DNA from: a virus
Length of the DNA: 64,000 nt
IMG/VR virus record: IMGVR_UViG_3300028384_001071
Location: 37,565 to 101,564 of that record
Reading direction: 5' to 3' (one strand)
Shown piece by piece: positions 4,854-36,881 of the stretch. The notes under the pieces were generated by a model that saw nothing but the letters and a program-made list of their open reading frames with translations, did no database searches and was not told the DNA's origin. Position 1 is the stretch's first letter. Each line of letters starts with the position of its first letter. A program made the position numbers and the translations under genes.

Positions 4854-7800
4854 ATGACACAGAATGTGCAATTTGGAGGTAACACCGCAGGCTTGGAATC
4901 CGCATTGAAGCGGGTGAATAAGTTCTTCGATGCGACTAACAACAAGATCAAATCTGTTAGTCGAGCATCGGTATCACTTAACAAGCGTGGCGGCGAACTC
5001 CGAACAACAATCAGTGGATTGACAGTCGATGGTCAACGATTCACTGCGACACTTGACCGTGTCAAGACCAAAACCGGGAAGCTGACGAAGGATTGGAAGG
5101 TGATGAGAGTCGCCACCGACTCCGCCGCTGAAGGTCAGAAGCGTCTTCAAAAGGAATTGAAACGAACATCGGCTGAGGCAGCTAAAGTCAGTGCCCAGCA
5201 AGCAAAGATCAATAACAGGAAGGAAGCATCAAGATTCCTGAGAAGTAACATCACAGGTAACAGGCAATTGTTCCCTGATGGTTTTGGCTCAGGTACTACC
5301 GATGCTCAAAGGGCTAATGTCCAAGCTGCGATTGCAGCCACTGGTCGACTTATCGAACGTGGCGAGTTCACTCGGCAGCAGTTCGCACGGGTCGGCAACG
5401 ACATCCGGAATAACTTGAACGCAGCGTTCACAGGTCCGGAGGCTAAGGCGGCAGCAGCCTTCCGTCGAATTGACGCAGCGATGCGGAACACTGGGACCAC
5501 GGCTCAAGAGGCCGCGAAGAAGGTGATCTTGACATGGACTGGTGTAATTAGGCTGTTTGCAGTTCAAGCCTTGCACTTGGTTATCGGACGGATAATAAGC
5601 AGCTTCCGGGAAATGGTCACAACAACCGTTGACCTTTCGAAACGGATTGCGGAGATAGGGACGATCTCGCGTAACGCAAACGCAGGATTCGGGGAATGGT
5701 CAAGTGTGTTGAAGGAAGTATCCAATAACTTTGGATTGGATCTTCTAGATGTGGCCGAGGGTGCATATCAAGCACTGTCAAACCAAGTAGCGAATGCCGC
5801 AACTGTTCAAGGCTTCTTAAACGAAGCCGCGTCATTCGGTCGAATTACAAACTCTAGTTTGACAGACTCTGTAAACCTTCTGTCGTCAGCAGTCAATGCT
5901 TATTCGTCACAAGGATTGTCAGCCGCCCGAGCATCAGAAGTCTTCTTCAAGACTATTGAACTTGGCCGTGTTCGTGCATCTGAACTAGCCAACACGTTAG
6001 GTACATTACTGCCGCTTACTTCACAGTTAGGTGTGTCGGTTGAAGAAGCCGCAGCAAGTGTTGCGACTCTGACCATTCAAGGTATCAGATCTGACACAGC
6101 GTTGACACTCATGCGTAATGTCATGCTTGGCCTTATTAAGCCAACCGACAGCATGAAGCAGTTGATGGAAGAATGGGGTGTTAGCACTGGTGAAGCGGCG
6201 ATCGCTACATTCGGATTGTCCGGAGTTCTTGAGCGATTGAACCAAGAAGCCCTTAGCGGTGGGATTACTCGTATCGGTGAACTAGCGGGCCGTCTGCGAA
6301 ACATTCAAGGTGTCATCGGTACTACCGGTAACGCCTTTGGTAAATTCAACGACAACCTTCGTGAAATTCAAGAAAATGCAGCCTCGTCATTCGACATTGC
6401 AGATCGCATAGCATCGAACTCACTGGGCAATCGACTGTCGGTACAGTTCCGGGAATTCCAGAACTTCTTCCGGACAGAACTAGGCCCTGCACTTTCGAGA
6501 AGTATCGCAGACCTTGTTGATAGGTTCGGAGGTGTTGATACAATCTTGAAGAATCTGATCGGACCATTCCAATCATTCTTCAATATCATGTCATCATTCA
6601 CCGAAGTGATCACAGCAGTCATAACTCCCATCGCGGATATGGCAAGTAGTTTAGGATTAGTCTCAGCCGGTGGAAGCCTACTCGGACCAATCTTAGCGGC
6701 ACTGACTGTTCGATGGGTTACAATGCGTGCCCAAGTCGTGGCATCGTCTGCTGCGACATTGTTAGCAGCGGCAGCTAAAGGTAAGCTCGGAGTATCTGCC
6801 CGTAGACTCGGTGCAATAATCCGATTGAATCGAATCCGGTTCAAGAATCTAACAGCATCTATAAGAGCCAACGCTCAAGCGGCAACTCTTCTGAATGCTG
6901 GTAGTAGAGCTTTGAGTGTCACAACTAGACTACTCGGATCTGCCTATCAGAGGGTGACAGCCTTCTTAATCCAGAACCGGATAGCTCAAGGCGTCTCGAA
7001 TTTCACTACTAAGATTGCAACCACAACTCAGAGTTTGTTCAGAACTGCCCTTCTTGCGACGACATTTCAATTAGGCATTTTCCGAGCAGCGTTACTTCAA
7101 ACAAACATCGGCACGAAGCTGGTAAACGTATCCTTGAACATCGCAGCAATTGGTACGAGGTTGTTTGGTTCGAGTTCAGCGATCGCAGCCGGTGGGGTGT
7201 TAGCTCTGACAGTTGCTACACGAGCGTTGGCTATCGCAGTCAATTCGGCATTCTTCTTCCTACCATTACTGATTGGATTCTTCATTGAAGCCGGTCAAGC
7301 GGCGGAAATGGAGTTTGCTAATAAGCTCGATGTCGCAGTCGAAGAGTCTCGAAGGTTAGGTCAGGAATCCTTAAAGGAACTGAACAAGAGTCTCGATGAG
7401 AACAAAGTAGCCTTCACGGATGTGGCAGATGCAATATCTGGTAAGTATCTGAAGGCCATCGCTGAGGTCCGTCGAGAAGCATTGAAGCTGTCAGGTGAAG
7501 AACTTAACGGAGCCTTTGATGGTTCTCTGGGTTCTATCAATCCTGATGATCTTGCTCAAGAACTAGGATTCGACAACAAGACAGCCAAGGATGCGGCTAA
7601 GGAAGCTGTTAAGTCGATCGAAGATAGCCGCTCGAAAGTCGAGAAGCTATTGTCGTCTATCACCGAGCTGCAAGAAGGAATTGCAGATCGTGCGTTGACG
7701 ACGACCGCTGATAGTATCAAAGCAGCATCTGGTAATCTTGAAGAAGTCGCCTTCTTGCAAGGCGAGCTTGAGAAGCTACTGACTCGTTCAGATACCTTCT

Positions 7801-9431
7801 TCGCATCAGGCGACCTTGACTCTGCAGAGCGAACCCTTGACAGGGCTGCTCGTTTGGCAGATCGAATCGATAAGGTCGATGCGACGATCGGGACTGAAGG
7901 TCTTGAAAGCGACCTCAAGAGTCTGAATGAAGCCATCAAGGTCACTGCTAAGCTGATTGAAGATGCTGACAAGCTCCTCAATGTTGAGCAGAAGTTCACG
8001 ATCCCTGAGCTATCAGTTAAGATTCGTGGTACTGATGATCTGAAGGAAGCAATCAATCTGTTCGGGAAGTTCACCGATCAGGTCGAGAAAGCAATGAAGA
8101 CTGTTGACGATCTCATTAAGAGTACACGTCAGCAAGTCATCGAGTTCGATCGACTAGGTGATGCGGAAGACCCGTTTAAGCTTGAGCAGGATGCTATCGA
8201 GCTATTCAATCTTGGTAACATCGATCAAGCCAAGACACTGTTTCAACAAGTTGACAAGCTCATCAATGGTATCGTTAAGAATGAACGTAAGGTCATCCGT
8301 TCAGCGGAAGCCCTTGGTGTCCGATTCCGTTCAGGTATCCTGAATAGATTCCGTAACGTATTCTCAGATCGACTTAACACTCTGAATCAGGGTCAAGGTC
8401 GTCTACAGGGTATACGGGGTCAGACAACAGGTGCCTTCCGAGGCTTGGTTGATCGTAACCGATCTAACCTAGAATCGAATCGAACGCGAGCCACTGACCT
8501 AGCCCGTCAGATTGCAGCGAACCCGAATGCGGCATCATCAGATGCAAGGGATCGTGTCGATCAAGCTCGTATCCGTTTACTACAGTCGGAAGTCGATAAT
8601 CAGAAGAAACAGCAAGAACGTCAAGCTGAACTGTCTCGATCATTCCAAGCAATTGCGAATAGTCAAGACGAGATTGTACGTAAGACTAAGGAAGCCAACG
8701 AAGCGCAGGCGGCTTACAACAAGAGAATCCAACAGACTGCCGAGAATTACGAACTAGCTCGAACCAACCTTAACAAGTTGGTAACCGACGGTGGTCGTCT
8801 TCAATTCGGTAAGGGATTCTTCGGCTTCGGATCGACAGACCTGACAGGTATTGAAGCTGCATCTCAACAAGCCGCAAGTGCGGCAGGTGCATTGTTTAGT
8901 GATCAAAGCGTTCCTGCTTTGAACCGCTACACTCAGTCTCTTAACAGGCTTGTGTCAGAGATTGAGAAGTCTCTTCTGATTGAGGAAGGTCTTAACCCTG
9001 ATGGTAATCGGGCGGAACTGCTAAAGCAGATCCCATCGATTAGCGTTGGAGGGCAACCTCAATCAGCGTCGTTGTTCATTAAGGACTTCCGAGATTCGAT
9101 TCGAGAGTTCGACAAGAACTTCCGAGCGAACTTCTCAAGTAGCCGAGGCGGTGTGCGTCCCGATGGGCCTGCTGCGTTGGAACGTGCAGTTCGAGATGAA
9201 CTGAAGAAGGCAAACCAGTCATTGGATGTCATTCGAAATCGTGGAACTTTCACACCTCAGATCCGATCAGGTTCTAGTGGTATTGGGCCTCAAAGTAATG
9301 CCGGTGCAATCACTGTCGGTGATATTGTTCTGAACATTGACGGGGCTGACGCTAGTGAAGGTGAAATGTACGAACGAATTACCCGTAGATTACGACGCGA
9401 TGTTCTTCGCGGAAATGTGAGGTTAGGATGA
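4854..9431 (+). CDS. Tail tape measure protein
   Basis: At 1525 residues this is the longest gene of the window. It sits right after the tail chaperone genes. Residues about 250-560 resemble the TP901/PhiTM-type core (MVTTTVDLSKRIAEIGTIS, then GVSVEEAAASVATLTIQG and LGNRLSVQFREFQNFF). A hydrophobic stretch near residues 780-825 (LALTVATRALAIAV and FFFLPLLIGFFIEAG) could insert into the host membrane during DNA entry. Long helical, coiled-coil-rich flanks fill the rest. By the usual scaling of about 1.5 angstrom per residue the tail would be very roughly 200 nm. Its last bases overlap the next gene (ATGA-type coupling). It ends with a short conserved-looking tail after a low-complexity region. 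Confidence 0.92.
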   Translation: MTQNVQFGGNTAGLESALKRVNKFFDATNNKIKSVSRASVSLNKRGGELRTTISGLTVDGQRFTATLDRVKTKTGKLTKDWKVMRVATDSAAEGQKRLQKELKRTSAEAAKVSAQQAKINNRKEASRFLRSNITGNRQLFPDGFGSGTTDAQRANVQAAIAATGRLIERGEFTRQQFARVGNDIRNNLNAAFTGPEAKAAAAFRRIDAAMRNTGTTAQEAAKKVILTWTGVIRLFAVQALHLVIGRIISSFREMVTTTVDLSKRIAEIGTISRNANAGFGEWSSVLKEVSNNFGLDLLDVAEGAYQALSNQVANAATVQGFLNEAASFGRITNSSLTDSVNLLSSAVNAYSSQGLSAARASEVFFKTIELGRVRASELANTLGTLLPLTSQLGVSVEEAAASVATLTIQGIRSDTALTLMRNVMLGLIKPTDSMKQLMEEWGVSTGEAAIATFGLSGVLERLNQEALSGGITRIGELAGRLRNIQGVIGTTGNAFGKFNDNLREIQENAASSFDIADRIASNSLGNRLSVQFREFQNFFRTELGPALSRSIADLVDRFGGVDTILKNLIGPFQSFFNIMSSFTEVITAVITPIADMASSLGLVSAGGSLLGPILAALTVRWVTMRAQVVASSAATLLAAAAKGKLGVSARRLGAIIRLNRIRFKNLTASIRANAQAATLLNAGSRALSVTTRLLGSAYQRVTAFLIQNRIAQGVSNFTTKIATTTQSLFRTALLATTFQLGIFRAALLQTNIGTKLVNVSLNIAAIGTRLFGSSSAIAAGGVLALTVATRALAIAVNSAFFFLPLLIGFFIEAGQAAEMEFANKLDVAVEESRRLGQESLKELNKSLDENKVAFTDVADAISGKYLKAIAEVRREALKLSGEELNGAFDGSLGSINPDDLAQELGFDNKTAKDAAKEAVKSIEDSRSKVEKLLSSITELQEGIADRALTTTADSIKAASGNLEEVAFLQGELEKLLTRSDTFFASGDLDSAERTLDRAARLADRIDKVDATIGTEGLESDLKSLNEAIKVTAKLIEDADKLLNVEQKFTIPELSVKIRGTDDLKEAINLFGKFTDQVEKAMKTVDDLIKSTRQQVIEFDRLGDAEDPFKLEQDAIELFNLGNIDQAKTLFQQVDKLINGIVKNERKVIRSAEALGVRFRSGILNRFRNVFSDRLNTLNQGQGRLQGIRGQTTGAFRGLVDRNRSNLESNRTRATDLARQIAANPNAASSDARDRVDQARIRLLQSEVDNQKKQQERQAELSRSFQAIANSQDEIVRKTKEANEAQAAYNKRIQQTAENYELARTNLNKLVTDGGRLQFGKGFFGFGSTDLTGIEAASQQAASAAGALFSDQSVPALNRYTQSLNRLVSEIEKSLLIEEGLNPDGNRAELLKQIPSISVGGQPQSASLFIKDFRDSIREFDKNFRANFSSSRGGVRPDGPAALERAVRDELKKANQSLDVIRNRGTFTPQIRSGSSGIGPQSNAGAITVGDIVLNIDGADASEGEMYERITRRLRRDVLRGNVRLG

Positions 9432-31216: not shown

Positions 31217-31348
31217 CAACTGTTCAAAGTCGATGACACATCGGACCGAAATGAGGAGGCAACACATTAAGCATTAACATCCTACCCAAACGGATTGCAC
31301 ATCGAAAACGGACTCAACTGCAACATTCTGTTTGAGGTATTGTTCACC

Positions 31349-32452
31349 ATGAGTGACGCTGCTGCTACTACTACGAAGTCTGAACTGAAGGAAATCCCAC
31401 TGTCGATGATTCGAGAGAATCCTGTGGCCCTTCGAGACGTGAATCGTAACACTGAGAACTACATGGAGATCGTCGACTCGATCAAGACCCGTGGCGTTCT
31501 CAATCCAATCGTCGTCCGGGCGATGAAAGATCCGGAGACTGACGAAGAGTTCTACAGCCTGATTGACGGGCTGCACCGCTACACCGCATCTCAAGATGCT
31601 GGTAAGGAAACTATCCCTGCTCACATTACGAGCATGGAAGATGCTGATGTCCTTGTTGCACAGATCATTGGTAACATTCACCGCATCGAGACGCGACCTG
31701 TCGAATACTCGAAGCAGCTTCAGCGAATCCTCGCTCAAGACCCAATGCTGACGTCGGCACAACTCGCGAAACAACTCGGCAAGTCCACGACGTGGATCAC
31801 CGACCGTTTGAATTTGCGAAAGATTGACGACAACATCGCCAAGTTGGTCGATGAAGGCAAGATCAACTTGTCGAACGCATTCGCACTTTCGAAGCTGCCA
31901 TCGGAAGAGCAGGCAGACTTCGCTGACCGTGCGATCACGATGACACCTGCGGAATTCACCGCAACTGTCTCTGAGCGTAAGAAGGCGTTGGACAAAGCCC
32001 GCCGTGAGGGCAAGGCTGCGACCAAGGGCGAATTCGTTCCCCCGGTCCATATGCGAAAGTTGAAGGAAGTTCGAACAGAGTTCGAGAAGCCGGAAGTCGG
32101 ACCACACCTGCTCAAAGAGCACGGCGTCAAGACCCCGATGGATGCATTCGCACTGGGCGTCGCCTGGGTTCTGCACCAAGACCCGACATCAGTCGCCGTC
32201 GCGAAGCAGAAGGACGACGCACGGAAGCGAGAGCTTCAGGAGAAGCGGGACAAGGCGAAAGCCCAGCGAGCATCGAACAAGGCGTCACAAGCTGCGACAC
32301 GTGCAGCACGTCTTCAGGTCGAATCAGAACTGCTCGAAAAGGGAGCGGACGAAGCTACCATCAAGAAAGCACTCGACGAGTTCGATGCTGCGAACGGCAT
32401 GAAGGACGGCAAGTTCGTCAAGCCCGAGAAGACCGAAGGCGATGCTAAGTAG
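31349..32452 (+). CDS. ParB-like DNA-binding protein 1
   Basis: 367 residues from the ATG at 31349 (GAGG 11 bases upstream; an in-frame GTG/ATG start further up lacks a ribosome site). The N-terminal domain has ParB/Srx marks: NPIVVRAM, IDGLHRYTA near residue 72 and IIGNIHRIETRP near residue 110. An HTH follows (TSAQLAKQLGKSTTWITDRL). The C-terminal third is a basic coiled coil rich in Lys, Arg and Ala. No ParA lies nearby, so partition is doubtful; regulation, DNA condensation or a CTP switch is as likely. The 13-bp-arm palindrome just upstream is a candidate target. Confidence 0.82.
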   Translation: MSDAAATTTKSELKEIPLSMIRENPVALRDVNRNTENYMEIVDSIKTRGVLNPIVVRAMKDPETDEEFYSLIDGLHRYTASQDAGKETIPAHITSMEDADVLVAQIIGNIHRIETRPVEYSKQLQRILAQDPMLTSAQLAKQLGKSTTWITDRLNLRKIDDNIAKLVDEGKINLSNAFALSKLPSEEQADFADRAITMTPAEFTATVSERKKALDKARREGKAATKGEFVPPVHMRKLKEVRTEFEKPEVGPHLLKEHGVKTPMDAFALGVAWVLHQDPTSVAVAKQKDDARKRELQEKRDKAKAQRASNKASQAATRAARLQVESELLEKGADEATIKKALDEFDAANGMKDGKFVKPEKTEGDAK

Positions 32453-32499: not shown

Positions 32500-33219
32500 A
32501 TGAAGACTATTCCAGCAGCTCCGTTCGCATCCGTATTCGGTGACGATGGCGGCTCCCTGATCTCACTTGCTGACTTGCAGGTGGGCGGTGAATTGACCAC
32601 TTCCGATGAGGACTTCGACAGTCTGATTACCTCGTCTTCCTTCCTACCTCGCGTCCAACTGTTTGGTGCAAACAGCAATGCTGTCACCGAAGAGAAGATC
32701 GGCCTCGGTCGATTCGGACTCGTGAAGTCGAAGGACGACATCGAAGACCTTGGTAAGACACTCGAATGTCTGCCAATTGCTTGGCGTTTCAAGGCGATGC
32801 AGATCGCCGATGGTGAAGTAGTCAGTAACTACGATCACGAATCCGACGAGTTCAAGCGTATCCAAGCGGAGTCTGAGGAAACCGATTCGGGAGCCATGTA
32901 TGGCATCGAGTTCCTCCTGTGGATTCCGGACATCAGTGGCTACGCCACTTACTTCCTGTCATCGAAGTCAAGTCGCCGTGAGGCGAAGCCGCTTCGAGCA
33001 CTGCTTGGAAAGGCAGCCTCCATCGAGGCTAACTTGGTCAAGACGAAGAAGTATGCGTGGCACGCTCCAAAGGTATCGTCAAGTGCGACACCATTCACGA
33101 ACATCCCTGATGGGGAAAGCGTTCGTGCTGAACTGGAGAAGTTCAAGAATCCTTCGTCATCGAAGACTGAAGGCACGACGGATGAGGAAGAGAAAGCGGT
33201 CGACGGAAGTCGCCGCTAG
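32500..33219 (+). CDS. Unknown protein, possible ssDNA-binding role
   Basis: 239 residues. I do not recognise a family with certainty. FLPRVQLFGANSNAV, then a conserved-looking GLGRFGLVKSKDD and LPIAWRFKAMQI suggest a mixed alpha/beta core. The C-terminus is charged and acidic in part (TEGTTDEEEKAVDGS). The position between ParB and the RNA cluster and the acidic tail are compatible with a single-strand-binding or DNA-associated protein, but this is only a guess. Confidence 0.55.
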   Translation: MKTIPAAPFASVFGDDGGSLISLADLQVGGELTTSDEDFDSLITSSSFLPRVQLFGANSNAVTEEKIGLGRFGLVKSKDDIEDLGKTLECLPIAWRFKAMQIADGEVVSNYDHESDEFKRIQAESEETDSGAMYGIEFLLWIPDISGYATYFLSSKSSRREAKPLRALLGKAASIEANLVKTKKYAWHAPKVSSSATPFTNIPDGESVRAELEKFKNPSSSKTEGTTDEEEKAVDGSRR

Positions 33220-33226
33220 CGTATAC

Positions 33227-33284
33227 AGGGCCGGAGTCGATGGGTTATCGATGCTACTGAATCCCACCGACAACAACATGCCCT
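33227..33284 (+). ncRNA. Y RNA-like element 1 (usual strand order)
   Basis: Predicted fold: AGGGC (33227-33231) pairs with GCCCT (33280-33284). CGGA bulges on the 5' side, opposite AACAACAT on the 3' side. Then GTCG/CGAC and TGGG/CCCA form a helix with one mismatch, and the terminal loop begins TTATC. Animal Y RNAs have the same order: outer helix, C-C-G-A bulge, helix, G-G-G-U-U-A-U-C loop; A-rich bases face the bulge. It lies 7 bases after the previous CDS and 6 before a tRNA-like element. Confidence 0.65.
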
Positions 33285-33290
33285 AACTTT

Positions 33291-33420
33291 GAAGAGGTAG
33301 GCAACACGGTTAGCCGCGAGTAGTGTAGACCATGACATCAACATTCCCGCCATGCGGGACGGCGTCTATGGATTATCAATAAGGAACTCGTGTATGTTGG
33401 TTCGAATCCAACTCTCTTCA
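33291..33420 (+). ncRNA. tRNA-like RNA with permuted Y-RNA module 2
   Basis: A tRNA body: acceptor GAAGAGG/TCTCTTC (33291-33297, 33413-33419) with A73, D arm GGC/GCC with a loop containing GG, and T arm GTTGG TTCGAAT CCAAC. At the anticodon-arm site CGAGT/ACTCG (33317-33321, 33386-33390) opens into a 64-base module: TAGAC/GTCTA, then AACAT opposite CGGC, then TCCCGC/GCGGGA closed by CAT. GGATTATC follows. This is a Ro60-binding module with its strands in reversed order. No normal 7-base anticodon loop with U33 can be formed, so it should not decode. A small-intron tRNA is the alternative. Confidence 0.6.
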
Positions 33421-33422
33421 CT

Positions 33423-33486
33423 TGCGGGTCGATGTATGACGGTTATCTTTTGGGAAGCTAGTCCCGTCAACACAACTATATCCGCA
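33423..33486 (+). ncRNA. Y RNA-like element 3 (usual strand order)
   Basis: TGCGG (33423-33427) pairs with CCGCA (33482-33486). A GTCGA bulge on the 5' side is followed by TGT/ACA and GACGG/CCGTC. The loop begins TTATC. The 5' strand, GGTCGA...GACGGTTATC, is close to the animal Y RNA strand G-G-U-C-C-G-A...G-G-U-U-A-U-C. The 3' side has the unpaired CAACTATAT. It lies between two tRNA-like RNAs, with 2 and 4 bases of spacing. Confidence 0.65.
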
Positions 33487-33490
33487 TCCT

Positions 33491-33611
33491 GTCAACGTAG
33501 TGTAATGGAAGCACGCTAAATCATGGTCTCCGACATATGCCTTCTGGGCCGGATGGAAGATCGTTATCGAATTAAAATCGAGTAGTCTAGGTTCGAATCC
33601 TAGCGTTGGCA
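33491..33611 (+). ncRNA. tRNA-like RNA with permuted Y-RNA module 4
   Basis: Acceptor GTCAACG/CGTTGGC (one G-T pair) with A73; D arm GTGT AATGGAA GCAC; T arm CTAGG TTCGAAT CCTAG. The anticodon arm is replaced by GGTCTCC/GGAAGATC (33525-33531, 33555-33562, one bulged A), an internal loop with GACATAT facing CGGA, and a tip helix GCC/GGC with loop TTCTG. GTTATCG follows at 33563. The base of the arm pairs poorly. Same plan as elements 2 and 7: tRNA body with reversed Y-module. Confidence 0.6.
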
Positions 33612-33633
33612 TCCCGAGGTCTCGGGTCTTGAA

Positions 33634-33709
33634 GGCGGGTTGGAGTAGTCTGGCTTATCTCGTCAGGTTTTGATTCTGAAGATCGTAGGTTCGAATCCTA
33701 CACCCGCTT
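33634..33709 (+). tRNA. tRNA-Gln (TTG)
   Basis: Acceptor GGCGGGT/ACCCGCT with G1-U72 wobble; D arm GAG/CTC with GG in a long loop; anticodon arm TCAGG TTTTGAT TCTGA giving anticodon TTG; T arm GTAGG TTCGAAT CCTAC. A weak first base pair is typical for Gln. The base at position 73 reads T, not the usual G, and no CCA is encoded. Confidence 0.88.
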
Positions 33710-33715
33710 CTATAT

Positions 33716-33790
33716 CGCAGGTTGGAGAAGTCGGGTCATCTCACTTGGCTCATAACCAAGAGATCGTGGGTTCGAATCCCACACCTGCTA
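33716..33790 (+). tRNA. tRNA-Met (CAT)
   Basis: Anticodon arm CTTGG CTCATAA CCAAG gives CAT; T arm GTGGG TTCGAAT CCCAC; D arm like that of the Gln tRNA before it, so the two are probably duplicates. Acceptor pairs GCAGGT/ACCTGC with an unpaired C1-T72, a feature recalling bacterial initiators, but the three G-C pairs needed in the initiator anticodon stem are missing. It could also be an Ile tRNA with modified CAT. CCA is not encoded. Confidence 0.85.
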
Positions 33791-33794
33791 TTAA

Positions 33795-33868
33795 GGGCGA
33801 GTAGCTCAACTGGGAGAGCATCCGGTTTGCAACCGGAAGGTTGCGGGTTCAAGTCCCGCCTCGGTCCA
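33795..33868 (+). tRNA. tRNA-Ala (TGC), bulged acceptor
   Basis: D arm GCTC AACTGGGA GAGC, anticodon arm TCCGG TTTGCAA CCGGA (anticodon TGC), T arm GCGGG TTCAAGT CCCGC. The 5' strand GGGCGAG pairs with CTCG-G-TCC only if one G bulges on the 3' strand. That reading restores the Ala identity pair G3-T70 and puts A at 73. Read without a bulge, pair 3-70 would be G-G with C73. It may be functional or decaying. Confidence 0.85.
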
Positions 33869-33913
33869 TTCGATCCCATTCAGTGCGTAACTGTTATGCT
33901 CGTAAATTCATCG

Positions 33914-33980
33914 AGCCGGAGGCGATCGGTTATCTACGAAATTCAAACTGAGGTAAGTAGATTGAAGAATGACTATGGTT
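33914..33980 (+). ncRNA. Y RNA-like element 5 (usual strand order, weaker)
   Basis: AGCC/GGTT (33914-33917, 33977-33980) encloses a GGAGG bulge, the helix CGATC/GATTG (one G-T pair) and a loop that opens GGTTATC. The unpaired 3' side is AAGAATGACTAT, like element 3. The helices are short, so this is the least certain of the set. An alternative fold uses GCTCG/CGAGC (33898-33916) as a reversed-order module. Confidence 0.45.
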
Positions 33981-33989
33981 AAACGTGGT

Positions 33990-34070
33990 GTGGGCAACCA
34001 CCAATTCGATTGTCGATGACATACCCGCCTGTCGGGTCGGACGATAATCGTTACCCTACGAAAAGCCCAC
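33990..34070 (+). ncRNA. Permuted Y RNA-like element 6, without clear tRNA arms
   Basis: Closing helix GTGGGC/GCCCAC (33990-33995, 34065-34070). Inside is a strong reversed-order module: ATTGTCG/CGATAAT (7 bp, one G-T), ATGACAT facing CGGA, tip ACCCG/CGGGT with loop CCTGT, then CGTTACC in place of GTTATC. There is no T-loop signature in the flanks that I can place with confidence, so this may be a Y RNA without a tRNA body. tRNA-Asn follows 20 bases later. Confidence 0.55.
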
Positions 34071-34089
34071 GGGTCGCAAGGCCCAACAC

Positions 34090-34161
34090 TGTACGATAGC
34101 TTAATGGTAAAGCGTCCGGCTGTTAACCGGGTGACTGTAGGTTCGAGTCCTACTCGTACAG
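34090..34161 (+). tRNA. tRNA-Asn (GTT)
   Basis: Perfect acceptor TGTACGA/TCGTACA; D arm with AATGGTAA loop; anticodon arm TCCGG CTGTTAA CCGGG with anticodon GTT; T arm GTAGG TTCGAGT CCTAC; G73 as usual for Asn. CCA not encoded. Confidence 0.93.
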
Positions 34162-34169
34162 CTACTTCT

Positions 34170-34264
34170 GGAACCGTTGCCTGTTGGTAGGCACCTGATT
34201 CTCATAACATGCCAAATAGGCCGGAGAGCATTAGTTATCGTTGGTTCGATTCCAATCGGTTCCA
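34170..34264 (+). ncRNA. tRNA-like RNA with permuted Y-RNA module 7 (clearest case)
   Basis: The tRNA body is complete: acceptor GGAACCG/CGGTTCC with A73 (34170-34176, 34257-34263), D arm GCC TGTTGGTA GGC, T arm GTTGG TTCGATT CCAAT. Directly after the D arm comes CTGATTCTC (34195-34203), pairing with GAGCATTAG (34226-34234) with one mismatch. Inside it, ATAACAT faces CGGA, and the tip is GCC/GGC around AAATA. TTATC occupies the place of the variable loop, then the T arm begins. So the anticodon arm is exactly replaced by a Ro60-binding helix with reversed strand order. It cannot act as an adaptor tRNA. Confidence 0.68.
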
Positions 34265-34266
34265 CT

Positions 34267-34326
34267 GACGGCTTCTGTCTGACTTATGACTCACCATACC
34301 TGAGCAAATAGTCCACAGAAGCCGTC
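34267..34326 (+). ncRNA. Long structured hairpin RNA A
   Basis: GACGGCTTCTGT and ACAGAAGCCGTC form a perfect 12-bp stem, with inner helices GACT/AGTC and CTCA/TGAG. No T-run follows, so a terminator is unlikely. It starts 2 bases after tRNA-like element 7, and no Y motif is visible. Possibly a separate small RNA or a processing spacer. Confidence 0.55.
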
Positions 34327-34334
34327 CAATACAA

Positions 34335-34430
34335 TTCGATGGTGGTAACTCGCTGGGAGCGGGCAGCGTACGATCTGGATGATCATTCGTGGAGCAAAGA
34401 AGCAGGTTCGATTCCTGCACCAACATCGAA
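34335..34430 (+). ncRNA. Degenerate tRNA-like element
   Basis: TTCGATGGTGGT (34335-34346) pairs with ACCAACATCGAA (34419-34430) with one mismatch, giving a 12-bp stem longer than a tRNA acceptor. A perfect T arm GCAGG TTCGATT CCTGC and a D-like arm CTC GCTGG GAG are inside. The remaining 40 bases hold GATC TGGAT GATC and no usable anticodon loop. CTGGATGATCATTCG is a weak echo of the Y motif. Either a decayed tRNA or another tRNA-bodied RNA. Confidence 0.5.
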
Positions 34431-34433
34431 GTA

Positions 34434-34490
34434 GGTAGTCGTGCCATTTCCGAAGCATGGCCACGCAATCTGAAACATAGTGCGACTACC
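34434..34490 (+). ncRNA. Long structured hairpin RNA B
   Basis: GGTAGTCG/CGACTACC (8 bp perfect) encloses a second hairpin GCCAT/ATGGC with loop TTCCGAAGC, then CGCAATCTGAAACATAGTG. It sits between the degenerate tRNA-like element and tRNA-Asp, in the same kind of place as hairpin RNA A. No function recognised. Confidence 0.5.
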
Positions 34491-34495
34491 GCCAC

Positions 34496-34566
34496 GGTCC
34501 TAAGGTGTTATGGTAGCATGACTGGTTGTCTACCAGTTGGCCGGGGTTCGACTCCCCGTAGGATCG
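34496..34566 (+). tRNA. tRNA-Asp (GTC)
   Basis: Acceptor GGTCCTA/TAGGATC (one G-T pair), anticodon arm ACTGG TTGTCTA CCAGT giving GTC, T arm CGGGG TTCGACT CCCCG and G73, the usual discriminator for Asp. The D arm is short, with GTGT/GCAT. CCA not encoded. Confidence 0.9.
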
Positions 34567-34644
34567 CTTGGCCTTTGCTAAGGTTAGCAATATCTGCGAA
34601 ACCCTTTGAAAGCATCGGTCCCCATTTCCAAAAGGAACCATGAG

Positions 34645-34785
34645 ATGCAGTGTATTACTGTTGAAGCCATCATCGCAGAACTTCGAGAGATCAAGGATAC
34701 TGTCGATGGTGAACCGGGTCAGGCGAAAGCCAAGATCGAAACACTGATGAACATCCTTGAACGCTCCGAGCGGTCATGTGCGTAA
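34645..34785 (+). CDS. Small helical protein inside the RNA cluster
   Basis: 46 residues with AAGGA 8 bases before the ATG. The sequence (ITVEAIIAELREIKDTVDGE, KAKIETLMNILERSE) is helical and looks like real protein. A second ATG 5 bases upstream opens a different, implausible frame. Function unknown. Confidence 0.6.
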   Translation: MQCITVEAIIAELREIKDTVDGEPGQAKAKIETLMNILERSERSCA

Positions 34786-34799
34786 GGCGACCGTGATTT

Positions 34800-34859
34800 C
34801 ACACATCTCGGAAAGCCTGTCACCGTAAACCTGAATGTGTGCAGGGAATGAAGGTGACA
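34800..34859 (+). ncRNA. Possible pseudoknot
   Basis: CACACAT (34800-34806) can pair with ATGTGTG (34835-34841), and TGTCACC (34818-34824) with GGTGACA (34853-34859). The two 7-bp helices interlock as in an H-type pseudoknot. It lies between the 46-codon gene and Y element 8 and may be part of the leader or of that RNA. Confidence 0.4.
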
Positions 34860-34863
34860 CTTT

Positions 34864-34973
34864 GTAGGGCCGGATGATTGATGGTTATCGCTGCCAAACC
34901 TTAGCGACGGTGGAGAGGCCACGTAATGGGTTCGATTCCCACGTTAATCCCGTCATTCTCTAACATGCCTTAC
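34864..34973 (+). ncRNA. Y RNA-like element 8 (YrlA-like, usual strand order)
   Basis: GTAGGGC/GCCTTAC (34864-34870, 34967-34973) forms the outer helix. CGGA faces AACAT, then GATGG/CCGTC (34880-34884, 34950-34954), then TTATC. The inner 60 bases hold CGCT/AGCG and GTGG/CCAC arms and the T-loop hairpin TGGG TTCGATT CCCA. An end-to-end Ro helix with an internal tRNA-like part is the layout described for bacterial YrlA RNAs. The Ro60 gene lies about 320 bases downstream. Confidence 0.65.
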
Positions 34974-35000
34974 TTTCTATGAATGAAATCCCAGATGAGT

Positions 35001-35070
35001 TCAGCGGTACGCTGAGCAACAGATGAAGAAGATCAGGAGGCAGCACTGCTCGCAGTGGCAGCCCCTGATC
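35001..35070 (+). terminator. Two hairpins ending the RNA cluster
   Basis: TCAGCG GTA CGCTGA (35001-35015), then GATCAGG/CCTGATC (35031-35037, 35064-35070) with inner GGC/GCC and CACTG/CAGTG helices and a CTCG loop. There is no long T-run after it. It may be a terminator or processing hairpin for the tRNA/Y RNA transcript, or another small RNA. Confidence 0.5.
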
Positions 35071-35103
35071 TATATTGCATCGAATATCTCTTGAGAGTCT
35101 TCA

Positions 35104-35283
35104 ATGATTCGATTCATAGCCGTCAACCCTAACGGGCAACTGATTGACAGCACTTTAAGATGTCAAGAGCAATCTTCAAGAACCGCACTGCTAGCATATC
35201 TCGCAGTTCGAGATGAGAGGTGGGATGACCTAGTCGCGGAAGGCTGGTCCATCAAAGAAGTCACTATCACTCTGGCCGAATAA
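35104..35283 (+). CDS. Small protein before Ro60 gene
   Basis: 59 residues (IRFIAVNPNGQLIDSTL at the start, WDDLVAEGWSIKEVTITL at the end), with protein-like composition. Its stop is 11 bases before the Ro60 ATG. Only a weak ribosome site (GAGAG) precedes it. Unknown; it could be a small Ro60 partner because the two genes are adjacent. Confidence 0.6.
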   Translation: MIRFIAVNPNGQLIDSTLRCQEQSSRTALLAYLAVRDERWDDLVAEGWSIKEVTITLAE

Positions 35284-35294
35284 GGAGAATATCC

Positions 35295-36881
35295 ATGCCA
35301 GCAGGAAACCTCGCGAAGCACGTATCAACCCGCCGAACACCTCAAACCCAACGGTCACAACCTGATGAGGTTGTGAACAACGCAGGTGGATTCGTCTTCC
35401 AACTCGACAAGTGGAAGCGTCTGGAACGCTTCCTGATCCTCGGCTCAGACGGCGGGACTTATTACGCCAATGAGCGAGATCTAACCATCGACAATGCACA
35501 AGTCATCAACGACTGTGCTTCCGAAGATGGACGTAAGACAGTTGATGTCATCTGCGAGATTTCGCAGGCCGGACGAGCACCGAAGAACGACCCAGCCATC
35601 TTCGCGATGGCAATGCTCGCAGGTTATGCCGATGACAATACTCGCAAGTATGCACTTGCGAATCTGAACCGAGTGTGTCGTATCGGTACACACCTCTTCC
35701 AGTTCGTCGATGCTGTCGAGAACTTCCGAGGATGGGGACGTGGACTGCGTAGAGCAGTCGGAGCGTGGTACACGGACAAGGATGCCAATCGACTGGCATA
35801 CCAAGTTACGAAGTACCAACAACGAGGTGGCTGGTCACACCGGGATGTACTCCGGTTGGCACACCCAGTCACTGAGAACGCCGAACTAACCGATGTCATC
35901 AAGTATGCAGCCGGGAAGTCCCATGATGGGACTAACCGCCTGATTGAAGGCGTCGAAGAAGTAAAGCGAGCGGGTAGTGCCAGCGAAGTGGTTCGGCTCA
36001 TTACCGAATATGGCCTCGTCCGAGAGCATGTACCAACCGAATGGTTGGGTGACGTGCAGGTGTGGGAAGCTCTCGTCGAGAAGATGCCAATCACTGCGAT
36101 GATCCGGAACTTGGGTAAGATGACCAGCAATGGTCTCCTCACTCCGATGAGCAACGCAGCGATGAAGGTCATCGCCAATCTTCGCGACGTCGAGAAACTG
36201 CGGCAGGGACGGGTACACCCGCTCGCTGTTCTTACCGCAATGAAGGTTTACTCTCAAGGTAAGGGAATCCGTGGCAGCCTGTCTTGGACACCTGTCAGTC
36301 AGATTTCCGATGCCTTGGACGACGCCTTCTATGCTTCGTTCGGAGTGATCGAGCCAGCCAATAAGCGGACGCTGATTGGTCTCGATGTGTCTGGATCAAT
36401 GTACGGAGGTTGGGGTGGTGATATCCAAGGAAGCCCACTCTGTGCAGCAGAAGCCTCAGCCGCAATGGCAATGGTTTCTGCAAGAACCGAGCCGTTCTTC
36501 CAGTTGATGGCTTTCTCCGATACGTTCCGTGACGTTACGTTCGGGGCCAAGTCAAGACTGGATGATGTACTTTCACGAACACGAAATATGACCTTCGGTT
36601 GTACTGACTGTTCACTTCCAATGATCTATGCGTCGGAGAACAACATTGATGTTGACACGTTCATGGTGCTCACCGACAGTGAGACGTATGCCGGAAGTAT
36701 CAAACCTCACCAAGCAATCCAACAATATCGTCAGAAGACGGGCATCCCTGCGAAGCTCGTTGTCGTCGGTATGACAGCGACCGGATTCAGCATTGCTGAT
36801 CCGAACGATGCCGGAATGCTTGATGTAGTGGGGTTTGACACGGCCGCTCCAAACATCATTTCCGACTTCTCGCGAAGCTAA
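35295..36881 (+). CDS. rsr: Ro60 / Rsr protein (TROVE plus vWA domains)
   Basis: 528 residues, the usual length for bacterial Ro60. AAGGAGA lies 7 bases before the ATG. Residues about 20-350 are HEAT-like TROVE repeats (FILGSDGGTYYANERDLT, PAIFAMAMLAGY, LMT-like NLGKMTSNGLLT). Residues about 355-528 are a vWA domain with the MIDAS DVSGSM (363-368) and LTDSETY. Ro60 is a ring that holds Y RNAs on its outer face and misfolded RNA in its hole; in Deinococcus and Salmonella a Y RNA ties it to PNPase. The cluster of Y-like RNAs just upstream should supply its partners. A strong terminator follows. Confidence 0.93.
   Translation: MPAGNLAKHVSTRRTPQTQRSQPDEVVNNAGGFVFQLDKWKRLERFLILGSDGGTYYANERDLTIDNAQVINDCASEDGRKTVDVICEISQAGRAPKNDPAIFAMAMLAGYADDNTRKYALANLNRVCRIGTHLFQFVDAVENFRGWGRGLRRAVGAWYTDKDANRLAYQVTKYQQRGGWSHRDVLRLAHPVTENAELTDVIKYAAGKSHDGTNRLIEGVEEVKRAGSASEVVRLITEYGLVREHVPTEWLGDVQVWEALVEKMPITAMIRNLGKMTSNGLLTPMSNAAMKVIANLRDVEKLRQGRVHPLAVLTAMKVYSQGKGIRGSLSWTPVSQISDALDDAFYASFGVIEPANKRTLIGLDVSGSMYGGWGGDIQGSPLCAAEASAAMAMVSARTEPFFQLMAFSDTFRDVTFGAKSRLDDVLSRTRNMTFGCTDCSLPMIYASENNIDVDTFMVLTDSETYAGSIKPHQAIQQYRQKTGIPAKLVVVGMTATGFSIADPNDAGMLDVVGFDTAAPNIISDFSRS

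What the first reader, a model, noticed from the sequence alone, without database searches (positions are those of the whole stretch)
33227..36881. Cluster of eight Y RNA-like elements beside a phage Ro60 gene, interleaved with tRNAs
Within 1.75 kb I find eight elements sharing one pattern: a short helix, CGGA (or close variant) facing ACAT or an A-rich strand, a second helix, then GTTATC. This is the Ro60-binding signature of Y RNAs (animal Y4 has C-C-G-A and G-G-U-U-A-U-C at matching places). A full-length Ro60 gene follows. Helices differ in sequence but keep pairing (AGGGC/GCCCT, ATTGTCG/CGATAAT, CTGATTCTC/GAGCATTAG), which is covariation-like support. Most organisms have one or a few Y RNAs. 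A phage array of many, mixed with tRNAs, suggests a distinct RNA quality-control or RNA-sorting system.
Basis: partly seen in the sequence, partly recalled or inferred. Interest (0 to 1): 0.95.

Follow-up and report, generated by a model that had tools for sequence, protein, structure and literature searches.

The report
Y RNAs built into tRNA bodies
Next to its Ro60 gene this phage carries a packed array of tRNAs and Ro60-binding Y RNAs, three of which are tRNA-shaped RNAs with the Ro60-binding hairpin set in as an extra or lengthened arm; the same design recurs in many phages and bacteria, where it is the reverse circular arrangement of the known bacterial Y RNA.

Summary
Seven CGGA/RUUAYC motifs lie in 1.8 kb beside a full-length Ro60 gene; 1000 shuffles averaged 0.2 and never reached seven. 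Three of its eight elements (33291-33420, 33491-33611, 34170-34264) are parts of tRNA-shaped RNAs: 7-bp acceptor stem, D arm and T arm in normal tRNA order, with the Ro60-binding hairpin at the anticodon side. Published bacterial YrlA has the opposite order: its own ends form the Ro60 stem, and the tRNA-like part is circularly permuted. Relatives separate the two forms by acceptor pairing. Across 244 modules, 59 pair 7/7 in tRNA order (1.25 expected) and 67 in YrlA order (0.9 expected). tRNA order occurs in 19 of 39 viral and 27 of 63 bacterial Ro60 loci with modules, including Minicystis rosea, Polyangium and Desulfonema magnum. The two forms never share a viral locus and cluster on the Ro60 tree. 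Both often keep an anticodon-like 7-nt loop. Two elements are plain Y RNA hairpins, one YrlA-like, one an inverted hairpin; one is doubtful. Ro60 binding, tRNA-type maturation and function are inferred. The key YrlA papers were not held, so priority is unchecked. Verdict: a new variant of a known kind.

The parts
33227..33284 (+). E1: plain Y RNA hairpin, canonical order (AGGGC/GCCCT, CGGA facing ACAT, upper helix, GUUAUC, small loop)
   Evidence: Sequence; scanner; fold -18.1 kcal/mol, z -2.0; Rfam RF01656 nematode sbRNA 36.0 bits against gathering 38, E 3.9e-5
33291..33420 (+). E2: tRNA-order Y RNA; acceptor GAAGAGG/TCTCTTC, D arm, anticodon-type stem CGAGT/ACTCG enclosing the Ro hairpin (loop CAT), AUUAUC, T arm GTTGG-TTCGAAT-CCAAC
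   Evidence: R1 65.9 bits (R1 includes this element); acceptor 7/7 against the upstream D arm, 4/7 against a downstream one; anticodon stem 5/5
33423..33486 (+). E3: plain Y RNA hairpin, canonical order (TGCGGGT/ATCCGCA, CGAUG, TGACGG/CCGTCA, GUUAUC)
   Evidence: Sequence; fold -19 kcal/mol, z -1.1; CGAUG departs from CGGA
33491..33611 (+). E4: tRNA-order Y RNA; acceptor GTCAACG/CGTTGGC, D arm GTGT-AATGGAA-GCAC, Ro hairpin (loop about TTC), GUUAUC at 33563-33568, anticodon-like hairpin TCGA-ATTAAAA-TCGA (33567-33581), T arm
   Evidence: R1 89.0 bits (R1 includes this element); acceptor 7/7; anticodon-like loop with U33, A37, A38
33634..33710 (+). tRNA-Gln(ttg)
   Evidence: ARAGORN; Rfam 55.4 bits
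33715..33791 (+). tRNA-Met(cat)
   Evidence: ARAGORN; Rfam 61.2 bits
33795..33867 (+). tRNA-Ala(tgc)
   Evidence: ARAGORN; Rfam 62.3 bits
33907..33934 (+). E8: CGAG-CCGGA-GGCGATCG-GUUAUC motif without a convincing partner strand (doubtful)
   Evidence: Motif present; fold z 0.08
33990..34070 (+). E9: inverted Ro hairpin (CGATTGTCG/CGATAATCG, ACAT, ACCCG-loop-CGGGT, CGGA, GUUACC) inside an outer stem GTGGGC/GCCCAC; no full tRNA body
   Evidence: Scanner score 35, permuted order; fold; R1 only 22.3 bits
34090..34162 (+). tRNA-Asn(gtt)
   Evidence: ARAGORN; Rfam 72.6 bits
34170..34264 (+). E10: compact tRNA-order Y RNA; acceptor GGAACCG/CGGTTCC, D arm GCCT-GTTGGT-AGGC, Ro hairpin in place of the anticodon arm, GUUAUC in the variable-loop position, T arm
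   Evidence: Rfam tRNA 36.4 bits, full length 1-71; R1 55.4 bits (R1 includes this element); acceptor 7/7; fold z -2.1
34496..34567 (+). tRNA-Asp(gtc)
   Evidence: ARAGORN; Rfam 51.6 bits
34864..34973 (+). E14: YrlA-order element; Ro stem from its own ends (GTAGGGC/GCCTTAC, CGGA/ACAT, TGATGG/CCGTCA, GUUAUC) with a T arm inside but no clear D or acceptor arm
   Evidence: R2 34.9 bits full length in the stretch 33000-35300; fold
35295..36881 (+). Ro60 (Rsr) protein, 528 aa, TROVE plus vWA
   Evidence: Pfam; PDB 1yvp Xenopus Ro60 E 1e-126 and 2nvo D. radiodurans Rsr E 2e-121; residues aligned with Xenopus K170, R174 and H187 are kept

Best explanation
The locus makes a set of Ro60 guide RNAs as one packed tRNA/Y RNA array. 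Three of them are tRNA-order Y RNAs: a tRNA body (acceptor, D and T arms) with the Ro60-binding hairpin inserted at the anticodon side. This is the circular permutant of YrlA, with the RNA's ends at the acceptor stem instead of at the Ro stem. Inferred working: the precursor is cut by tRNA enzymes (RNase P at the acceptor 5' end, tRNA 3' processing and CCA addition). The same cuts release the plain Y hairpins that lie 3-4 nt from tRNA-type ends. Ro60 then binds the CGGA/ACAT-helix-GUUAUC hairpin, while the tRNA body, modified as in YrlA, offers a tRNA-like handle to an effector such as PNPase or a tRNA enzyme. Shown here by sequence and comparison: the anatomy, its covariation, its recurrence, and the heritability of the topology. 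Inferred: Ro60 binding (from conserved motif and residues and neighbouring genes), the maturation route, and the effector.
For: Acceptor pairing was not used to pick the modules. 59 of 244 modules pair 7/7 with the upstream D-arm acceptor strand (1.25 expected) and 67 with the downstream one (0.88 expected), as two separate groups. All three window composites pair 7/7 in tRNA order. A covariance model from 17 elements finds others out of sample in viral and bacterial Ro60 loci. In 40 aligned elements 96% of cells pair, with 334 double-change cells against 87 shuffled; all 8 pairs of the upper Ro helix have compensatory changes. Rfam's tRNA model matches many full length at 36-55 bits although ARAGORN misses them. 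The topology is clustered on the Ro60 tree: tRNA order needs 10 changes against 30.9 shuffled. An anticodon-like 7-nt loop is enriched (71 against 12.9 expected) with U33, A37 and A38. Residues that bind Y RNA in Xenopus Ro60 (K170, R174, H187; role recalled, not re-tested) are conserved. Gaps between E1, E2, E3 and E4 are only a few nt.
Against: No expression, processing or binding data. The window elements fold only modestly better than shuffles (z -1.1 to -2.1). E2 and E10 lack an anticodon loop, and E14 lacks a full tRNA body. Window E2 and E10 score far below the best relatives. The window elements and several relatives were in the seed of model R1, so their R1 scores are not independent. 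Only 11 of 60 tRNA-order elements encode CCA, and discriminator bases vary. No sigma-70-like promoter was found in the array (0 found, 2.3 expected by chance).
Confidence: 0.72

Rival explanations
1. Topology artefact: these are ordinary YrlA RNAs in tandem, and the 3' half of one unit plus the 5' half of the next only look like a tRNA with an insert.
For: Tandem YrlA arrays are common, and one R1 hit of 56.6 bits (Gordonia phage Cashline, L002) is exactly this, with acceptor pairing 4/7.
Against: In E2, E4 and E10 and in dozens of relatives the acceptor pairs 7/7 within the unit and not with the next one. The lower Ro helix is closed by a short loop in the same unit. No viral locus mixes both orders.
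Confidence: 0.06
2. Anti-defence decoys: the composites are tRNA mimics whose anticodon-like loops or tRNA bodies soak up or report host anticodon nucleases, with Ro60 protecting or disposing of damaged tRNAs.
For: Anticodon-like loops with U33 and 33 different triplets. Ro60/YrlA sits in RNA-repair operons activated by cleaved tRNA, and a competitive-inhibitor role was proposed by others (PMC7790460).
Against: PMC7790460 found no YrlA fragments under nuclease activation. E2 and E10 lack the loop. The design is as common in bacterial chromosomes as in phages.
Confidence: 0.15
3. The composites are broken or intron-bearing tRNA genes, invaded by a Y RNA hairpin or an intron, without function of their own.
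For: The Rfam tRNA model accepts several as tRNAs with long inserts.
Against: The insert has the same Ro motif and covarying helices in unrelated Ro60 loci. No Rfam intron family matches. The topology is inherited with Ro60.
Confidence: 0.04
4. The tRNA order is only a neutral rearrangement of YrlA: it arises when a tandem array shifts register, and both forms do the same job with no special maturation.
For: The two orders interconvert by a shift of register in a tandem array; several switches are needed on the Ro60 tree.
Against: Each topology persists in clades and the two are not mixed in viral loci, which suggests that the form matters for processing or binding.
Confidence: 0.3

Closest known systems
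YrlA (bacterial Y RNA-like A; Chen 2014; structure 6CU1)
   Same: Ro60-binding helix plus a tRNA-like part with D, T and acceptor arms; gene beside Ro60. The published Salmonella YrlA superposes on tRNA with a circular permutation (PMC11472068) and is described as a large stem made by the 5' and 3' ends plus a tRNA-like domain (PMC8394870).
   Different: In E2, E4 and E10 the ends lie at the acceptor stem and the Ro helix is a closed internal hairpin, i.e. the circular permutant in normal tRNA order. Rfam RF02553 does not detect them.
Animal Y RNAs, nematode stem-bulge RNAs and D. radiodurans Y RNA
   Same: E1 and E3: short terminal stem, CGGA-type bulge, upper helix, GUUAUC. E1 approaches the Rfam sbRNA model (36.0 bits, gathering 38).
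   Different: Much shorter (58-64 nt), several per locus, and placed a few nt from tRNA-type ends.
tmRNA
   Same: A tRNA-shaped end with an inserted functional part in place of the anticodon arm.
   Different: Insert of about 50 nt that is a Ro60-binding hairpin; no reading frame; D and T arms both intact.
Phage tRNA arrays with Ro-like genes (actinophages; Listeria phage CKA15)
   Same: A Ro-like gene close to tRNAs and YrlA-type RNAs. Ro-like proteins occur in 349 phage records, and Y RNAs were suggested for CKA15 (PMC12282133).
   Different: The named phages examined with resolvable order had YrlA order only (7 modules, none tRNA order).

Membership tests
Y RNA (Ro60-bound) | Conserved Ro60-binding helix with bulge motif and UUAUC | tested here: met
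   Motif excess; covarying helices in relatives
Y RNA (Ro60-bound) | Encoded next to a Ro60 gene | tested here: met
   Ro60 at 35295-36881
Y RNA (Ro60-bound) | Bound by Ro60 | not testable with these tools
   Only conservation of the residues aligned with Xenopus K170, R174 and H187
YrlA | tRNA-like D, T and acceptor arms | tested here: met
   E2, E4, E10; E14 has only a T arm
YrlA | Ro stem formed by the RNA's own 5' and 3' ends (tRNA part circularly permuted) | tested here: not met
   Not met for E2, E4, E10 (acceptor 7/7 in tRNA order). E1, E3 and E14 do have terminal Ro stems
YrlA | Match to Rfam RF02553 at its gathering score | tested here: not met
   Best 23.2 bits against 69. Neither order matched in 14 relative loci either, so this model is narrow
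tRNA | Acceptor 7 bp, D arm, T arm in order | tested here: met
   Rfam tRNA on E10 36.4 bits
tRNA | Anticodon arm with 7-nt loop | tested here: inconclusive
   E4 has TCGA-ATTAAAA-TCGA; E2 and E10 do not. About a third of tRNA-order relatives have one
tRNA | Recognised by a tRNA gene finder | tested here: not met
   ARAGORN misses all composites
tRNA | Aminoacylated and used in translation | not testable with these tools
   No data
Nematode sbRNA (RF01656) | Match at the Rfam gathering score | tested here: not met
   E1 36.0 bits against 38, E 3.9e-5

The most novel reading that the evidence does not exclude
Ro60 partners in many phages and bacteria are complete five-armed tRNAs. They have acceptor, D, T and often a real anticodon stem-loop, plus a Ro60-binding arm between the D and anticodon arms. 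They mature through RNase P and CCA addition and serve as tRNA decoys or adaptors for a tRNA-directed enzyme or for host tRNA nucleases.
Probability: 0.3. Interest if true: 0.87.

Novelty: new variant of a known kind. Interest (0 to 1): 0.72.

Why it matters
What the tRNA-like half of bacterial Y RNAs is for is still open. A natural circular permutant that keeps the same parts but moves the RNA ends from the Ro60 site to the acceptor stem is a ready-made test. It suggests that the tRNA-like part is under selection as a true tRNA shape, predicts tRNA-type maturation, and separates Ro60 binding from end placement. The forms occur in cultured bacteria (Minicystis rosea DSM 24000, Polyangium sp., Desulfonema magnum), so the predictions can be checked with ordinary small-RNA sequencing. 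It also means that annotation pipelines may miss these genes or call them odd tRNAs.

Tried and rejected
Single-sequence Ro60 search of viral and genome contigs gave nothing; an alignment query worked. Rfam YrlA as a detector was rejected because it finds neither order here. Cashline (L002) as a named phage with tRNA order was rejected: its two YrlAs are canonical, acceptor 4/7. L059 and L157 R1 hits look canonical for the same reason: poor in-unit acceptor pairing by eye, and canonical units found by scanner or R2. A bit-score cut-off alone was rejected as a classifier; the acceptor test was used instead. A decoy-hexamer control first looked leaky (up to 9-10 hits), but every decoy hit was one of the real elements met through another hexamer. 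E8 as a full element was rejected. Aminoacylation identity from the anticodon-like triplets was not pursued: triplets and discriminator bases are too varied. No structure prediction was run because Ro60 is already solved in homologues.
Full report
Setting. The window is bases 37565-101564 of a 101,564-base virus record. It encodes a major head protein, a tape measure protein, a DNA polymerase and a DNA ligase, so it is a tailed phage. The Ro60 gene at 35295-36881 has both Ro60 domains and aligns over nearly its whole length with Xenopus Ro60 1yvp (E 1e-126) and D. radiodurans Rsr 2nvo. The residues aligned with Xenopus K170, R174 and H187 are conserved. Their role in Y RNA binding is recalled from the literature, not tested here.

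Observation. In 33200-34999 the motif CSG[AC]-N5-12-RTTAYC occurs 7 times on the + strand, while 1000 dinucleotide shuffles gave a mean of 0.2 and a maximum of 3. E1 (33227-33284), E3 (33423-33486) and E14 (34864-34973) have the Ro stem at their own ends. E2, E4, E9 and E10 have the strands in the reverse order, with the lower helix closed by a short loop. E8 has the motif only and no convincing fold. E1 nearly reaches the gathering score of the Rfam nematode stem-bulge RNA family (36.0 of 38 bits, E 3.9e-5). Those RNAs are described as homologues of vertebrate Y RNAs (PMC4726728).

The missed tRNA bodies. E2, E4 and E10 each lie in a tRNA-shaped body. Acceptor stems are GAAGAGG/TCTCTTC, GTCAACG/CGTTGGC and GGAACCG/CGGTTCC, with D arms and TTCGA-type T arms in normal order. 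ARAGORN misses them, but Rfam's tRNA model accepts E10 over its full length at 36.4 bits. The order known for Salmonella YrlA is different. YrlA is described as a large stem made by the RNA's 5' and 3' ends plus a tRNA-like domain (PMC8394870), and it superposes on tRNA with a circular permutation (PMC11472068). So the window's composites are the opposite circular form: tRNA order, with the Ro hairpin internal.

Relatives. Ro-like proteins occur in 349 phage records. I fetched 12 named phage loci, 80 viral-contig Ro60 loci and 80 bacterial genome loci. A covariance model of the tRNA-order RNA (R1; 17 sequences, 123 positions, 28 pairs) finds many further elements in viral and bacterial Ro60 loci. 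The 17 seed sequences include the three from the window, so their own R1 scores are not independent. In 40 aligned elements 96.0% of cells pair, with 334 double-change cells against 87.5 shuffled and a covariation score of 0.809 against 0.220. That alignment is fitted to the model and so leans towards it. The seed alignment, made by MAFFT, shows the same (91.6% paired, 121 against 38 double changes), but its members had been chosen partly for acceptor and T-stem pairing. A model of the YrlA order (R2, from 20 sequences) finds that form widely as well.

Discriminating test. A tandem array of either form can be misread as the other, so each module was scored without using acceptor pairing to choose it. 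Does the 7-nt strand after the T arm pair with the acceptor strand of the D arm upstream (tRNA order) or downstream (YrlA order)? Of 244 modules 59 pair 7/7 upstream (1.25 expected from cross-locus re-pairing) and 67 pair 7/7 downstream (0.88 expected). Counting 6/7 or better on one side only, viral Ro60 loci give 29 tRNA-order modules in 19 loci and 25 YrlA-order modules in 17 loci, of 39 loci with any module and none with both. Bacterial loci give 34 modules in 27 loci and 53 in 31, of 63 loci, five with both. Named phages give 0 and 7. A few loci are near-duplicates (for example L178/L180, L196/L197), so locus counts are slightly inflated. All three window composites are 7/7 in tRNA order. 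The test also caught a false R1 hit in Gordonia phage Cashline (4/7), so bit score alone is not a safe classifier.

Heritability. On a tree of 95 Ro60 proteins the tRNA-order label needs 10 changes against 30.9 for shuffled labels (0 of 500 as low), and well-supported branches force at least 4. The topology is inherited with Ro60 and has switched several times. This is a quick tree, and near-copies add to clustering.

Anticodon-like arm. Directly after RTTAYC many modules of both orders carry a 3-5 bp hairpin with a 7-nt loop: 71 against 12.9 in shuffles. Position 33 is U in 58 of 71, positions 37 and 38 are A in 56 and 54, position 32 is C in 46, and 33 different triplets fill positions 34-36. 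A few of these are T arms misread, as in E10. In the YrlA-order alignment two pairs of this stem show compensatory changes. E4 has TCGA-ATTAAAA-TCGA. In nine tRNA-order elements, including E2, a 5-bp anticodon-type stem encloses the Ro hairpin instead (1.75% expected by cross-pairing), and about 20 of 60 have the separate hairpin. So the Ro arm lies either between the D and anticodon arms or inside the anticodon arm.

How it probably works. The elements lie head to tail: gaps of a few nt separate E1, E2, E3 and E4, and real tRNAs follow. No sigma-70-like promoter is seen inside, which is weak evidence for one precursor. I infer that tRNA enzymes cut the precursor, that the cuts at tRNA-type ends also free the plain Y hairpins, that Ro60 binds the Ro hairpin, and that the tRNA body is the handle for an effector. 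In D. radiodurans the Y RNA tethers Rsr to PNPase (PMC7790460), and YrlA is a DusA and TruB substrate (PMC8394870). Only 11 of 60 elements encode CCA, so CCA addition would be needed. None of these steps was shown here.

Limits. No expression or binding data exist for these elements. Element boundaries outside the acceptor stems are approximate. Model E-values come from short calibration. The key YrlA papers (Chen 2014, Wang 2018, and the Wolin reviews, except as cited by others) were not in the library, and full-text searches found no mention of a tRNA-order form, so novelty is likely but unproven. Verdict: a new, widespread topological variant of a known RNA family, found here in a phage array.

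Noticed in passing
34339-34427: A further tRNA-shaped element with acceptor-type stem and T arm but no Ro motif and no normal anticodon arm (Rfam tRNA-Sec 21.9 bits, below its cut-off; R1 18.7 bits).
   Followed up: partly
34267-34327 and 34435-34490: Two compact hairpin RNAs with long outer stems (GACGGCTTCTGT/ACAGAAGCCGTC; GGTAGTCG/CGACTACC) packed between tRNA-type elements; no family match.
   Followed up: no
31295-32452 and 41278-42153: Two ParB-like genes flank the Ro60/tRNA region at a few kb on either side.
   Followed up: no
L003:6995-7416 and 7670-8110: Gordonia phage Sixama has a tmRNA and three YrlA-type motifs interleaved with about 20 tRNAs just downstream of its Ro-like gene.
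   Followed up: partly
L290:8896-9148; L226:8888-9012; L233:5587-6113: Cultured bacteria (Minicystis rosea DSM 24000, Polyangium sp. 15x6, Desulfonema magnum 4be13) carry tRNA-order Y RNAs beside Ro60; in the first two they lie among many tRNA genes.
   Followed up: partly
L005, L002, L156, L198: Rfam's YrlA model (RF02553) misses clear YrlA-order RNAs beside Ro60 in phages such as Ava3 and Cashline, so public annotation of bacterial Y RNAs is probably far from complete.
   Followed up: partly
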